Positions 4,162 through 60,401 of a DNA stretch of 64,000 nt are shown piece after piece. Source of the DNA: an uncultured bacterium (GTDB lineage: Bacteria > Patescibacteriota > Gracilibacteria > Absconditabacterales > Absconditicoccaceae); contig CAMVNA010000002.1 in assembly GCA_947168725.1 (NCBI GenBank), positions 1 to 64,000 of the forward strand, given 5' to 3'. Position 1 is the stretch's first letter. Every line of letters begins with the position of its first letter. Made by a program: the position numbers and the translations under genes. Below the pieces are notes generated by a model, which made no database searches, was not told the origin of the DNA, and worked only from the letters and a program-made list of their open reading frames with translations.

Positions 4162-4238
4162 TAAGAAATTTGTAAAAAGATAAAATCTAATTTTACAGGT
4201 TAATTATAGGCAATTTTTATATAAAAGCAAATCTTTTT

Positions 4239-4360
4239 ACACTTTTTCGATGGAATAATTGTTACAAAACTACACTTTTTCGATGGAATAATTGTTACAA
4301 AACTACATTTTTTCGATGGAATAATTGTTATAAAACTACACTTTTTCGATGGAATAATTT
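4239..4360. repeat. 33-bp tandem repeat, right block (about 4 copies)
   Basis: The unit repeats with exact 33-bp spacing: the conserved CG lies at 4248, 4281, 4314 and 4347. The variants CACTTTTTCG and CATTTTTTCG, and one C/T change in GTTACAAA, show slight divergence. Because 33 is divisible by 3 the minus strand stays open and gives an artificial repetitive peptide (IIPSKKCSFVT); this is not taken as a gene. There are no CRISPR-type spacers. Confidence 0.9.
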
Positions 4361-4372
4361 TTTCTGACTTGC

Positions 4373-4400
4373 TTGATTTTTGAGAAAATATTGATATAAG
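4373..4400 (+). promoter_or_regulatory. Promoter of leader RNA A
   Basis: TTGATT (4373-4378), 16 bp, TATAAG (4395-4400). The conserved RNA sequence AAGAGCCAAAT begins two bases further on. The homologous locus at 24 kb has TTGAAA, 16 bp, TATCTT at the same distance. Confidence 0.5.
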
Positions 4401-4402
4401 GT

Positions 4403-4553
4403 AAGAGCCAAATCTATTTAGTCGGAATTCACAAGAATTTTGCAATTAACAAGATAAGACGATTGGTATTATCGTTTCTTTATCTTCGTTGATTGCGAAA
4501 TCCGATTTAAAGAAAATAGGTTTGGCGACTCGGTAATATCAGTCGTCTTTTTT
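4403..4553 (+). ncRNA. Three-way-junction leader RNA, copy A (riboswitch-like)
   Basis: A structured RNA shared with copy B at 23962-24105. P1 pairs GCCAAATCTATTT (4407-4419) with AAATAGGTTTGGC (4514-4526). A small P2 is AATTC-acaa-GAATT. P3 starts with GCAATTAAC (4442-4450) against GTTGATTGC (4488-4496) and continues as AAGATAA/TTATCTT and ACGAT/ATCGT. A terminator, GGCGACT (4524-4530) with AGTCGTC (4541-4547) and six T, shares its first GGC with the P1 3' strand, so P1 and terminator compete. It lies ahead of the EcoRI-type methyltransferase gene. No known riboswitch class was recognised. Confidence 0.7.
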
Positions 4554-24124: not shown

Positions 24125-25357
24125 ATGAAAAAATTACTCATTTTATTACCATTACTTCTTTTGTTTATTACAACTCTAACCTTTGCTAGAACCGATAGAT
24201 TTGATTATAATATATATAATAAATGTGTTCAAAATTTACAAATACAAATAAACAATGCCGAAGCACAAGCATCAGATTGACTATGATTTTCTAGAAATTG
24301 AAGTGAATATTTAAATTCTCTCCCTGATGGTGACGAAATTTATGAAATTTGTGAATCAGAAGCAGAAAACTGGGAAGATAGAAATAGTTGGAGTTTTTAT
24401 CACCAACTAGCAATAAGTGCAGCACAAAGAGATGACTATGAATCAGTAATTGAATACCTTGAAAAAGCTATATATTATGAACCCGTAGGTTCAGAAGTTT
24501 ACAACATAACATATAATGAAATACAAGAAGCTAAAGATATTATAAAGGAGGAACAGAAACAAATTCAACAAAAACAAGATGAACAGGACCAAAAGGCAAT
24601 AGATAAAGTAAATGAATATATAAAAAAATGAAATGAATATCGGAAATCAGACCAATTAGATAAAGCATTAGCAGAATTTCAAGGAGCAAAGAATTTAATG
24701 GATAGTTACACAAAAATATCCTGGCATACAGACTGAATGCCTGTAGAAGAATCAATAGAGTTAGTCAAAAAACAAATAAAAGAAAAAGAAACTCAAGAAA
24801 AAGGAAACACAACAAACACAACAACACAGACAAAACCCATTACAAAAGATGAAGAATTAAAAATTGCGATACAATGGATGTATGATAATTGACTAACAAT
24901 ATATAACCAAGTCCAAGATTTCTTACCAAATAATGAAATAACAAGAGAACAAGCATCAAAATTTTTTGTAGAATTTGCTGCAAAGGTTTTGTGAAAAGAA
25001 AGATGAAATATATATAATTATAATATTTTCTCCGATATATCAAATGCAGACCCGACATTAAAAAACCATATAATATATGCAAATAATATGTGACTATTCA
25101 AATGAACAAATTGAAAATTTAATCCATTCAACAAACTAACCAAAGCCCAAGCAATTGCCGTTACCGTAAGAATGGCTAATTGATATATGGATGAAAATTA
25201 TAATTCACGATATTTAAACTATTATTATGCAGCTGATTCTTACTGAATATTAAAATGGTGATGATATGAATTTGACACACTAGATAAACAAAATATTTCA
25301 AGGTGAGATATGGCACTAATATTATACAATTTATATCTCTATCTAAACAATAAATAA
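24125..25357 (+). CDS. Secreted protein with coiled-coil/TPR region and SLH domains
   Basis: A 410-residue exported protein. Residues 1-22 are a signal peptide (LLILLPLLLLFITTLTFA). A TPR-like and coiled-coil part follows (DDYESVIEYLEKAIYYEP; QKQIQQKQDEQDQKA). The C-terminal 150 residues carry S-layer homology repeats: ITREQASKFFVEFAAKVLG, FSDISNADPTLKNHIIYANNMGLFKG and LTKAQAIAVTVRMANG. SLH domains normally bind cell-wall polymer, so this is likely a wall-attached surface protein. It is expressed behind leader RNA B. Its stop codon abuts the convergent helicase gene. Confidence 0.85.
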
Positions 25358-46106: not shown

Positions 46107-46706
46107 TTAATCTAATAATTGAATCACTTCCGAAATCTGATCATCGCTATAATCAGTTTTTTGATTTACACTTCTCATAAGCATCAACATTACATATCAC
46201 CTTATCTCATTATCCATTGGCACGTCGATCTTTTTCATTATTCACTCATATTGTAATGCTTTTAAATGGCTCTCATAATAAGTATTTCATCACCCATATT
46301 TATTTCACCATAAAGCTCTAGAAAGTACAGTTCAAAACTCAGCCCTCGTAACAAAATCCTTTGGTTTAAAAGATGTTATTCACTGTCACATCAATCACAA
46401 TTGACAACTTTCAGTAACAAATTTAACTAAATCTGGATTAATATTTGAATCAGAAAATAGACAATTCTTTGTCGTATCAGGAGATTTTCATAAAATATTT
46501 ATAGCATAATTGCTAATCATCTTTGCCATTTCTTCTCTTGTAATTTTTCATCACATATTTGCCTTTTCAATCGAACTTTGAGTAGTAATTTCGCTTTGAT
46601 AAGCCCAATTATATGCTTGCCTTAATTCAGAAGAATAATCCATTCAAATACATATCGTAAACGTAAACAACAATCAAAGCATTGATGAAATTAACAATTT
46701 TTTCAT
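46107..46706 (-). CDS. Secreted SLH-like protein
   Basis: A 199-residue exported protein. The first 17 residues are a signal peptide (LLISSMLGLLFTFTICIG). Two SLH-like segments follow: GKITREEMAKMISNYAINILG with CLFSDSNINPDLVKFV, and FKPKDFVTRAEFGTVLSRALWG. Many glycines are UGA. It is divergent from the OLD nuclease gene. With the protein at 24125 it is the second SLH protein in the window. Confidence 0.75.
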
Positions 46707-56147: not shown

Positions 56148-59100
56148 ATGAACAAAAAAATTATTGCTACCGGAATTTCTGCTTTTTTAATATGCTGAAG
56201 CCTATTTATTTCAGAAGCTAATGCCATCCAATATACTATACAATGAAACTCAACCTCGGTCGAAGGAGATTTCAATTCTTGAATTGAAATAAATCGATGA
56301 GATAATTCCTCTGACTATTGCGAAAACTCATGTAATCACAGTTATACTAACAGCTGAGAATATACCATAACTATAGACAGCACCAACGCAGAAAAGATTT
56401 TAGAATTAGATTTATCTAATGCAAATATTACAAATATTATAAATATGAGCTGAGCAACTAACATAACATATTTAAATCTCAAAAATAACAAAATAAACCA
56501 TATAGAAAATAATGCTTTTGAGGGTAGTATTTTTAAAAACTGAAAACGAATTGCTTATCAACGAAATTGAACATCATATACCGAAACAGATAAATCATGC
56601 CAACGATGAGAGCAATGAGTTGATGAGATATGTTACGATAAATCAAGCCGAACAATTAACTTATCAAATAATGAATTAAAAGAGATTCCAGAAATGTTTA
56701 ATAATGATGATAGATATTGAGAGAATCCTCAAGTTTATCGGACTGAGGTGATTTTATCCGACAATCTTTCAAATAGTTATACACACCCATCATATCGAGT
56801 TTCACATTGACTATCTGATCCCCCTAGAATAGTAAATTTAAAAAACAACCCAATAACTCTACTAACTCCACCCGTAGAAATAACAAAAGAGAAGGCCTGC
56901 TTTTATAACGGCCCATATCACCGGTCAGAACCTTTCGATTGCGAATTTTTCACTCGGAATTATAATTCAGAAAACCCCAACATACTATCTAAGTATACAC
57001 TTAAAGATCCTCTAGGTGGGATTTTTACCGGAGAGACTTCTGGAGTATTAACAGGATGAGTAAGGGAATTTGGCATATCGCCATTTCATTCGACAGAAGA
57101 CGATAAAAATAATGTTGCGCATCGAATTAACTGAGAATATACACTATCCATTGATATACTGTCATGAGATGATATTATAGCCTCAAGATCAGACACCTTT
57201 AACATAGAATTTGCCACACTGCGCATTATTTCTCCTTACGAGAATCAAACAATAAATTATAATATTCATGACCGAGATGCATGATTAGATTTTGAATTAC
57301 AGCTTCGTAGGGAAAAAATGACTGAGAGTCGACTTCCATCCCCAAGTTTTAACTGCGAAATAACAATAAATAACTCAAATTATAATTGCGAACTATCAAA
57401 GCTCCCTACCGGTCCATACTATTATGAAGATTACGAAATTTGAATATTCTTAAAAGACAATTTAGATAATCCGAGACAACTATTAACACCTGAAGGAACT
57501 TGACAAATAAAGGTTTCACTGAAAAATCGACGAGGAGAAACTGTTACGGGTGACACCTTCAATTTTAAATACACCACATTATACAGTGTTACATTAGATA
57601 ACCAAGAAGCGACTACCCCAGGTACTGAAAAATATTATTACAAATTCAATACAACAGGATCGACTCCTGATGGTACTGCCGTATATTACTGGCAAAATGA
57701 AGCCTGCACAGATTCACTTCTTCAGATTGAAATTCCAACAAAAAGTGGATATATATTCGACTGATATTATACAGATATAAATGGTAGTGGCACACAATAC
57801 ATTGACTCTAGTGGACACTACATAAATAACTTACGGAAAACAGTAACATGAGATACTACATTATATGCTAAATGGAATTCTGAAACAACTTATACTATTA
57901 ATCACCTCAAACAAAATATTGACTTAACTGACTATGATTTAGCTGAATCTGAAACTTTCACCTGAATAGTTGATGATGAAATTACTCCTTCTACAAAAAC
58001 GTATACTGGATTTACCAGCCCCAATACTCAATCAGGCACTATTCTTTCTTGAGGATTATTAACTATTAACTACTATTATACTAGAAATAGATATACTGTT
58101 ACCTATGATTCAAACGGTTGAACTCCTATCGCTGATACTGGAATATTATTTGAAGCTACTATCCCTACTCCTACTCCTTCAAAAAATTGATTCACTTTCA
58201 ACGGATGGTCTGGATTACCAACCTCTGGCTTAATGCCTGCAAATGATATCATTTTAACTGCTGACTGGAACGCTAATTCTTGAGGCGGTTGATGAGGTAA
58301 TACTGAAACTACTTACACTGTAACCATCACACCATATCCTACCTCTTATTGATCTGTTAGTCATACTTCTGTTACCGCCAATTCTGGAACCACTATCTCC
58401 ACCAGCTGAAATACGCTAACTATCGGATCTTCTGATGTAGTCGCCTCCCCCAACACGCCTACTACTATGCTTACTTCCTACTCTTTTAGTTGATGGATTA
58501 ATAACTGTTGAAATTCTTTAATATGAAATTGTGAAATTGTTGCTGAATTCAAAAAAAATTCTCAAGCTACCTGAGGAACTTATACTTGAACAATTTTTAC
58601 TTGAGCTGAACGAACTTGAACAACTCATTCTTGAACTACAAGACAATACACCGTAACTATAACTTCATCCAACACTGGATACTGAACCGTTAGTCTAGAG
58701 TCTGTTACTGCTGATTTTTTATCCAAAATTTCTACTAGCGAAAACATTCTAACTATCGGATCTACTGATGTTATTGCTAACCCTTCCGAGTCCACTACTC
58801 TATATACATACTCTTTCAGTGGACGAATTAATAATTGTTGAGATACTTTGACCAAAACATGTTCTATAATCGCTGATTTTGCTAAAAATACAAATCAAGG
58901 AAATGGAAACAATTCAGGAACAAATTGAAGCTCAAGTTCAAGCTCAAGCAACAATTGATATTCTGGCAAATCTCATTATACAGACGAAGATAAAAAAAAT
59001 ACAAATAATAATTCAATTTCACAAGAATCCTCTACGAAAACAGAAACAAAACAAACTGAAACATCTCAAACAATACAATCTCAGAACTCAATCAAATATA

Positions 59101-59459
59101 TTTCCAGAAGTTGTAAACCATATAATATAGAATATATCCCAGAACTAAATGCTTATACATCTCCAGACTTAAAAAAGAAAGAATATTTCGTCAATATCGA
59201 ATACTTCAAAAGATATGTTGACTCCAAAAACGCTCAAAATGCTGAATGTTACGTAACAAACAGATCCCGGATTACAAAATCCTATATAGATACCTCTAAT
59301 TCAAACAATCGTTTTGTTGCTCCAAATTGAAAAATATATTTTATAAATCAACAAAACTGATTCTATAGATCAAGCAACATAAACTCTTCTAAAAATTTTA
59401 CAACAATAGATGAATTGAAAAATTATATTAAAAAACGCAATCCTCTTATTCCAATGTAA
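56148..59459 (+). CDS. Large InlB-like surface protein with Listeria-Bacteroides repeats
   Basis: A 1103-residue exported protein. The signal peptide is IIATGISAFLICGSLFISEANA. Leucine-rich-like segments (ELDLSNANITNIINMSG; RTINLSNNELKEIPEMF) lie in the first 250 residues. Two Flg_new/InlB B-type repeats follow at about residues 510-700 (GYIFDGYYTDINGSG ... DTTLYAKWNSE; YTVTYDSNGGTPIADTG ... NGWSGLP...LTADWNA). Two repeats of about 90 residues (YTVTITPYPTSYGSVSHTSVTA) precede a Ser/Asn linker, and the C-terminal domain (SCKPYNIEYI ... NPLIPM) is shared with the next gene. It is likely an adhesin. Confidence 0.85.
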
Positions 59460-59486
59460 AAAATTATTTTAGTATTTTCTCGTTCA

Positions 59487-60401
59487 ATGAAAAAAAACAG
59501 TATTATTATAAAAAGCATATCATCGTGCATACTATTGTGTTGTTTTTTCTCTGTTAGTTTCTCAGCAACAACGCAAAAATGACTAAATATTTTACAGCAA
59601 TTAGAAAATGATTGACGAACGAAAGATGAAATAAGGGTCGCTATGAATGATTTATGATATAATTCCGATGAATATTTATGAACATGAGAATCAAAAATTA
59701 AAGTAATTATTGCTGATCCAATTATAGAAAACACAAACAAAAATCATTGATGAGACGTTATTGACCAACTAAAAAAAGATTGACGAACCGATGAAGAAAT
59801 TAAACAAGCTATGGAAGATCTTGGCTTAAACTCTAGTAAATATTTCACAACAAATAACACCATTAATTATACAACACCTCAATCAAAATATATAGCAAGG
59901 AGCTGTAAACCATATAATATAGAATATATTTCTTCACTAAATGCGTACTCTTCTCCTGATTTAAACAAAAAAGAATATTTCGTCAATATAGATTATCTCA
60001 AGAGATATGTTGATTCTAAGAATGCCCAAAACGCTGAATGCTACACAAGTAGATTTTGGATTACTACATCATACGAAGATGCAAATAACTCAACAGACCG
60101 CTATACCGCTCCAAACTGAAAGATATATTTTATAATACAACAAGACTGAAAATATACATCATACGAATTAAATTCTTCAAAATATTTTTCTACAATAGAT
60201 GAATTAAAAAATTATATCAAAAAACGTAATCCTCTTATTCCAATGTGAACAAATACAGAAACTCAAAATACAACAAATCCTGTCACTCAACTACAAAACA
60301 ACAATTTAGAAACAGTATATTCTGAAGAAAACAACGAAACTAGCTGAACGTGAAACGATGAAAACATAATTTCAGATTTACGAAAAGAATTATTTGAATA
60401 A
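59487..60401 (+). CDS. Secreted protein sharing the C-terminal domain of the InlB-like protein
   Basis: A 304-residue exported protein with a signal peptide (SISSCILLCCFFSVSFSA). Two related helical units follow: QLENDGRTKDEIRVAMNDLGYN and QLKKDGRTDEEIKQAMEDLGLN. The domain from about residue 135 to 250 is nearly the same as the end of the preceding protein: SCKPYNIEYI, LNAYSSPDLNKKEYFVNI, KRYVDSKNAQNAEC, and RNPLIPMG. It has a further 50-residue charged tail. The genes are 27 bp apart and probably co-transcribed. The domain may be a surface or export module. Confidence 0.8.

What the first reader, a model, noticed from the sequence alone, without database searches (positions are those of the whole stretch)
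56148..60401. Surface-protein pair sharing a new C-terminal domain
Seen: the last 115 or so residues of the 1103-residue InlB-like protein recur almost unchanged in the following 304-residue secreted protein (SCKPYNIEYI..., DSKNAQNAEC, RNPLIPM). Many differences are conservative and the nucleotide sequences have diverged, so the copy is selected rather than recent. Inference: a surface anchoring, export or partner-binding module not present in the domains I know.
Basis: partly seen in the sequence, partly recalled or inferred. Interest (0 to 1): 0.62.

Follow-up and report, generated by a model that had tools for sequence, protein, structure and literature searches.

The report
New C-terminal repeat on surface proteins
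Two neighbouring exported proteins of a tiny parasitic or predatory bacterium share a previously undescribed 44-residue repeat, which related bacteria carry one to three times at the very end of huge surface proteins and which probably holds those proteins on the cell.

Summary
Residues 983-1103 of the 1103-aa protein and 134-253 of the 304-aa protein are 77% identical. The interpretation needs one correction: the "115-residue domain" is two tandem copies of a 44-residue repeat (YIAPNGKxYxI..GxYxSxxFxxxKYFxTLxxLxxYIDxNNP). No Pfam, NCBIfam or PHROG family or PDB sequence matches it, and it is not confined to these two genes. I found 105 copies in 42 proteins of one bacterial family (SR1/Absconditabacteria), 1-3 copies per protein. 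In 39 of 42 the last copy ends within 7 residues of the C terminus, often of exported proteins of 900-2,400 aa. Divergent copies occur in two more families of the same class. AlphaFold models are confident (pLDDT 94-96) and show beta-beta-beta-alpha units with no clear PDB match. The window's two copies correspond to units 1 and 2 of an ancestral triplet. Unit 1 carries a strictly co-occurring cysteine pair. The 1103-aa gene is absent from the same slot in three sister genomes, so an unrelated LRR/B-repeat passenger probably gained a copy of its neighbour's module. Most likely role: a non-covalent surface-retention module, analogous to triple SLH, CWB2 or GW repeats. Ligand and role are untested.

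The parts
56148..59459 (+). 1103-aa exported protein (LRR and List_Bact/InlB_B-type repeats, low-complexity linker, two C-terminal 44-aa repeats)
56148..56225 (+). predicted cleavable signal peptide (MNKK...SEANA|IQ), residues 1-26
   Evidence: sequence; hydropathy; no signal-peptide program was run
56403..56525 (+). leucine-rich-repeat-like stretch, residues 86-126
   Evidence: LRR_8 E 0.001, 19.3 bits, below its gathering score of 27
57735..57887 (+). List_Bact_rpt (InlB B-repeat type), residues 530-580
   Evidence: TIGR02543 24.6 bits over cut-off 20.95
58092..58211 (+). Flg_new/List_Bact repeat, residues 649-688
   Evidence: PF09479 E 2e-12, 47.5 bits over cut-off 27
59097..59231 (+). 44-aa repeat, unit 1 of the 1103-aa protein
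   Evidence: E 1e-15
59313..59444 (+). 44-aa repeat, unit 2 of the 1103-aa protein (ends 4 residues before the C terminus)
   Evidence: E 1.4e-14
59487..60401 (+). 304-aa exported protein, syntenic in three sister genomes
59487..59567 (+). predicted cleavable signal peptide (MKKNS...SVSFSA|TTQ), residues 1-27
   Evidence: sequence; hydropathy
59571..59681 (+). 37-aa N-terminal element 1 (GRTDEEIKxAIEDLGYNASxYF type)
59739..59849 (+). 37-aa N-terminal element 2
59889..60023 (+). 44-aa repeat, unit 1 of the 304-aa protein, with the first Cys of the Cys pair
   Evidence: (E 6e-17)
60102..60233 (+). 44-aa repeat, unit 2 of the 304-aa protein
   Evidence: E 1.7e-17; single-unit model pLDDT 95.5
60246..60398 (+). 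51-aa Asn/Thr/Gln-rich C-terminal tail; similar length in the G004 and G003 orthologs, absent in G005

Best explanation
The shared segment is two copies of a new 44-residue repeat with a beta-beta-beta-alpha fold. It works as an exchangeable C-terminal retention module of exported proteins in SR1/Absconditabacteria. The Sec pathway exports the protein, the N-terminal signal is removed, and the folded C-terminal array (ancestrally three non-equivalent units, two in this genus) binds a component of the bacterium's own envelope non-covalently, leaving the variable passenger exposed. Passengers are LRR plus B-repeats here, and beta-helix or Ig-like domains in relatives. Shown: the repeat, its distribution, C-terminal position, export-type N termini, unit order, co-occurring cysteines and predicted fold. 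Supported by synteny and a moderately supported tree: a duplication in which an unrelated passenger gained the neighbour's module. Inferred: binding to the cell's own envelope, the nature of the ligand, and the disulfide.
For: There are 105 copies in 42 proteins, and 39 of 42 end within 7 residues of the last unit. Of the 34 proteins with a complete N terminus, 31 have a hydrophobic N-terminal segment, against 84 of 179 long control ORFs. Passengers differ (LRR/List_Bact, Beta_helix/NosD, Big_13) while the C-terminal array stays. Neither window protein has another membrane segment or an LPXTG motif after the signal peptide. Triplet units keep their identity: window-genus unit 1 scores 88 against unit 1 of triplets versus 50-57 against the others, and unit 2 scores 93 against unit 2 versus 57-78. 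CWB2 repeats, which anchor C. difficile wall proteins, behave in a comparable way: three tandem, non-identical and not interchangeable (PMC4973711). A Cys pair in unit 1 is present together in 27 proteins and absent together in 15, and units 2-3 have no Cys, consistent with folding outside the cytoplasm. The architecture parallels InlB, whose GW repeats bind lipoteichoic acid (stated in PMC4973711). Synteny and tree indicate capture of the module by a lineage-specific passenger.
Against: No ligand, localisation or binding data exist. Relatives in families f22 and f14 have 1-2 units followed by an Ala/Thr/Lys-rich tail, and one lipoprotein (L088) has the units just after its lipobox, so the module is not an obligate C-terminal anchor everywhere. 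About half of the family's genomes lack it (23-24 of 49 have it), although they also need surface retention. A sortase is present in 47 of 49 genomes, so covalent anchoring is available. Some relatives have long N-terminal hydrophobic segments that may stay as membrane anchors, which would place the C-terminal array at the outer tip.
Confidence: 0.5

Rival explanations
1. The array is an adhesin tip. An uncleaved N-terminal segment keeps the protein in the membrane and the C-terminal repeats bind the host or prey surface.
For: Absconditabacteria with known biology are predators or epibionts with giant surface proteins thought to attach to the host (PMC8080830). Several g13 proteins have N-terminal hydrophobic segments starting 17-25 residues in, after a long charged stretch, as in signal anchors.
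Against: Both window proteins have short, classical, apparently cleavable signal peptides and no other membrane segment. Host-binding tips are usually the fast-evolving part, whereas here the array is the conserved part and the passengers vary; purifying selection on the array is strong (dN/dS 0.13).
Confidence: 0.2
2. The array is a homo- or heterotypic assembly module that joins neighbouring surface proteins, such as the tandem-encoded pairs, into fibres or a complex.
For: Array-bearing genes occur as adjacent same-strand pairs at nine examined loci, including the window. The weak structural resemblance to peptide-binding SH2 halves (Z about 3) would fit a protein-binding fold.
Against: Sister genomes carry only one such gene at the same site, and single array genes occur in other genera. 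Adjacency is also what tandem duplication leaves behind.
Confidence: 0.15
3. The array is an export or sorting signal read by a dedicated secretion or processing machine, like the C-terminal domains of type IX secretion substrates.
For: Extreme C-terminal position in 39 of 42 proteins.
Against: Only one to a few array proteins per genome, not dozens; no conserved partner machine beside them; the 304-aa type carries a 50-residue tail beyond it; proteins already have Sec-type N termini; variable copy number (1-3).
Confidence: 0.1

Closest known systems
CWB2 and SLH triple repeats (Firmicutes wall anchoring)
   Same: Tandem, typically three, non-equivalent copies of a short repeat at one end of an exported protein with variable passengers
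   Different: No sequence match; beta-beta-beta-alpha units of 44 aa; ligand unknown; 1-3 copies; different bacterial group
Listeria internalin B with C-terminal GW modules
   Same: Overall plan of the 1103-aa protein: signal peptide, LRR stretch, List_Bact B-type repeats, C-terminal tandem modules
   Different: LRR match is below the Pfam cut-off; C-terminal modules show no sequence match to GW/SH3 modules
DUF1508 / YegP repeats (PF07411)
   Same: Short tandem beta-beta-beta-alpha units with an NG turn; weak structural hit 2k8e (Z 3.8, 2.4 A, 41 residues, 17% identity)
   Different: No profile-level similarity (hhalign probability 1.5%); YegP-type proteins are small and lack the C-terminal tandem layout on giant exported proteins
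SH2 domain, second half
   Same: Similar strand-strand-helix order and a vaguely similar KxYxI..GxY....F.SL..L..Y pattern
   Different: Only half of an SH2 fold, Foldseek E of 0.6 or more and Z about 3; no phosphotyrosine context
Bacteroidetes type IX secretion C-terminal domains
   Same: C-terminal module shared by otherwise unrelated secreted proteins
   Different: Few proteins per genome, no profile match, no sign of the secretion system near the genes

Membership tests
DUF1508/YegP (PF07411) | sequence profile match | tested here: not met
   PF07411 not among hits of 39 array members at E<=0.1 or of seven divergent members at E<=10; hhalign probability 0.5-1.5%, against 98.8% between the f1 and f22 versions of the repeat as control
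DUF1508/YegP (PF07411) | tandem beta(3)-alpha(-beta) fold | tested here: inconclusive
   VIA-align 2 Z 3.8, 2.4 A, 41 residues to 2k8e
SH2 domain | sequence profile match (PF00017) | tested here: not met
   no Pfam SH2 hit at E<=0.1 for 39 members; PDB profile search only E 1.2 or more
SH2 domain | fold | tested here: inconclusive
   Foldseek E 0.6-3, VIA Z about 3, only the C-terminal half aligned
SLH, CWB2, GW, LysM, SPOR and other Pfam wall-binding modules | Pfam profile match | tested here: not met
   none among hits of window proteins at E<=1 or of 39 array members at E<=0.1
Non-covalent C-terminal wall-binding modules (functional class) | tandem non-equivalent units at one end of exported proteins with variable passengers | tested here: met
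Non-covalent C-terminal wall-binding modules (functional class) | binding to own cell wall or polymer | not testable with these tools
   needs protein and envelope material
LPXTG/sortase-anchored proteins | C-terminal LPXTG, hydrophobic stretch and charged tail | tested here: not met
   no LPXTG and no later hydrophobic segment in either window protein; a sortase gene does exist in the genome
Internalin B family | LRR plus B repeats plus GW modules | tested here: not met
   Flg_new/List_Bact above cut-off, LRR below cut-off, no GW
Type IX secretion C-terminal domain | Por_Secre_tail-type profile and dozens of substrates | tested here: not met
   no profile hit; one to a few proteins per genome

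The most novel reading that the evidence does not exclude
A new class of envelope-anchoring repeat, confined to candidate-phyla bacteria of one class, that recognises a polymer of these bacteria and displays their giant host-contact proteins. It would be the first dedicated non-covalent surface-display module described in this group, as far as the papers searched here show.
Probability: 0.35. Interest if true: 0.65.

Novelty: new variant of a known kind. Interest (0 to 1): 0.45.

Why it matters
Absconditabacteria live on other bacteria and carry giant surface proteins whose means of attachment to the cell is unknown. A small, confidently folding, easily recognised repeat (AlphaFold pLDDT 95 as a single 49-aa unit) gives a handle for finding those surface proteins in uncultured genomes. 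It also gives an expressible reagent for finding the envelope component they hold on to. The window further catches a probable module-capture event between neighbouring genes.

Tried and rejected
(1) A known domain: Pfam, NCBIfam, PHROG and PDB sequence searches were negative. (2) DUF1508/YegP homology, suggested by a VIA hit and by eye: rejected at profile level, with a positive control at 98.8%. (3) SH2 relationship: only half the fold, Foldseek E of 0.6 or more; not claimed. The absence of a strong PDB match does not show that the fold is new. (4) Viral or plasmid origin: two scans of viral contigs and a plasmid tblastn were negative; the viral fold search had nothing at E<=0.001. (5) Wider spread: of 380 phylum genomes only G000 and one marginal hit (G539, E 4e-4, about 0.4 such expected by chance); G001's E 9.7e-4 hit is judged chance. 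(6) The conserved TTTKAS tail as a general C-terminal tag in f22/f14: the pattern search found it mostly at the repeat genes themselves. (8) Literature: no paper in the library contains the repeat's signature peptides.

Full report
Setting. The window comes from a 1.07-Mb genome (17 contigs, 91% complete) that reads with code 25, TGA = Gly. Close relatives in a named collection are titled candidate division SR1 or Gracilibacteria bacteria, so I place it in the SR1/Absconditabacteria group.

Observation. Residues 983-1103 of the 1103-aa protein match residues 134-253 of the 304-aa protein at 77% identity (E 3e-57). The copies differ at 23% of bases, with dN 0.15, dS 1.19 and dN/dS 0.13, so the sequence is under strong purifying selection. 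A whole-genome search finds no third protein with it in this genome.

What the block is. An iterated profile shows it is two tandem copies of a 44-residue repeat with consensus YIAPNGKEYTIYKTDGGYTSPNFKKKKYFSTLEELKRYIDSNNP. AlphaFold gives mean pLDDT 93.7 for the two-unit block and 95.5 for a single unit alone: three short strands, then a helix. A unit is therefore likely an autonomous domain.

Distribution. In fetched loci of the same bacterial family there are 105 copies in 42 proteins, with 1, 2 or 3 copies each. In 39 of 42 proteins the last copy ends within 7 residues of the C terminus; the three exceptions are the 304-aa type of the window's own genus, with tails of 49-55 residues. Many carriers are very large (900-2,393 aa). 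Of 34 with a complete N terminus, 31 have a hydrophobic N-terminal segment, against 84 of 179 other long ORFs of the same loci (a simple hydropathy test, not a signal-peptide predictor). The non-repeat parts differ: List_Bact repeats and LRR here, right-handed beta-helix or Ig-like domains elsewhere. A wider profile finds it in 38 of 353 genomes of the class: 24 of the family's 49 (one of them, G001, judged chance), 11 of family f22 and 3 of f14. The f22 form is clearly homologous (hhalign probability 98.8%, E 9e-17). There the units sit before an Ala/Thr/Lys-rich tail in FMN_bind-type exported proteins, and in one lipoprotein they follow the lipobox directly (L088). One single-unit protein in the window's own family (L107) again ends in the repeat. 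A draw of 380 phylum genomes gave nothing beyond the own genome and one chance-level hit.

Internal logic of the array. The window's two units correspond by similarity to units 1 and 2 of the three-unit proteins (mean scores 88 and 93 on the matching positions, 50-78 otherwise), so this genus appears to have lost unit 3. Unit 1 has a cysteine in the PNxK turn and another just after the helix in 27 proteins, and neither in the remaining 15; units 2 and 3 have no cysteine (one of the 27 was missed by the script because its unit boundary is shifted by one residue). The rows are related and not independent events, but the strict co-occurrence points to a disulfide and so to folding outside the cytoplasm.

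History. In three sister genomes (G004, G003, G005) the slot between the SPL-type radical-SAM gene and dnaB holds a single gene of the 304-aa type. The window holds two, the 1103-aa gene being extra. The passenger of the 1103-aa protein has no relative in 49 family genomes except weak LRR-region matches in G006. A tree joins the two window arrays to the exclusion of the G004 ortholog, with moderate support (83/92). The simplest reading is that the array was duplicated locally and joined to an unrelated passenger after the split from G004. Gene conversion between older copies is not excluded. Adjacent same-strand pairs of array genes also occur in two other genera.

What it is not. No Pfam, NCBIfam, PHROG or PDB sequence family matches. 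Foldseek and VIA-align 2 give only weak matches: the second half of SH2 domains, the tyrosinase caddie protein and YegP, all Z below 4. DUF1508/YegP was tested at profile level and failed. Weak or missing matches do not prove a new fold.

Mechanism. I favour non-covalent retention on the cell's own envelope (0.5). The array is the conserved part on otherwise unrelated exported proteins. It sits at the C terminus. Neither window protein has another retention element after its signal peptide. The positional identity of the units mirrors CWB2 triplets, which are non-identical and cannot replace each other and which bind a wall polymer (PMC4973711). That paper also records GW repeats of internalin B binding lipoteichoic acid, and the 1103-aa protein has the same general plan as internalin B. 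A GT4 glycosyltransferase lies next to array genes at eight loci in two genera, which is suggestive at most, because it is convergent and may be mere synteny. Against: half the family lacks the array, sortases are present in 47 of 49 genomes, and f22/f14 relatives use the unit elsewhere in the protein. Rivals are a host- or prey-binding tip (0.2), an assembly module (0.15) and a sorting signal (0.1).

Verdict. It is a new repeat family of moderate spread with a plausible but untested role. It works like a known kind of surface-display module without being a member of any known family.

Noticed in passing
window 59571-59681 and 59739-59849: Two 37-aa elements (GRTDEEIKxAIEDLGYNASxYF) directly after the signal peptide of the 304-aa protein, with clear matches only in four genomes of this genus; no Pfam match.
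   Followed up: yes
L081-L087, L089, L108-L112 (families f22 and f14): Exported, mostly FMN_bind-type proteins carrying the divergent repeat mostly end in a conserved (D/N)TTT(K/A)AS C terminus after a long Ala/Thr/Lys-rich tail; one further hit at G114:C7:26760 (L125) lies elsewhere.
   Followed up: partly
L045, L052-L055, L058, L059, L061: A GT4 family glycosyltransferase (cluster c4) lies next to array-bearing or array-related giant genes at eight loci in two genera.
   Followed up: partly
L088:5597-6766: A probable lipoprotein (LLLGSCG lipobox) with two divergent repeat units at its N terminus instead of its C terminus.
   Followed up: partly
window 24125-25357 and 46107-46706: Exported proteins that look S-layer-homology-like by eye, a possible second envelope-anchoring system in the same genome; no profile search was run on them.
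   Followed up: no
window 4200-4445: Short ORF with in-frame tandem repeats (KKCSFVTIIPS), possibly a non-coding tandem repeat.
   Followed up: no
G000:C6:30480-30905: A single sortase gene; its substrates in this genome were not identified, and neither window protein has an LPXTG motif.
   Followed up: no
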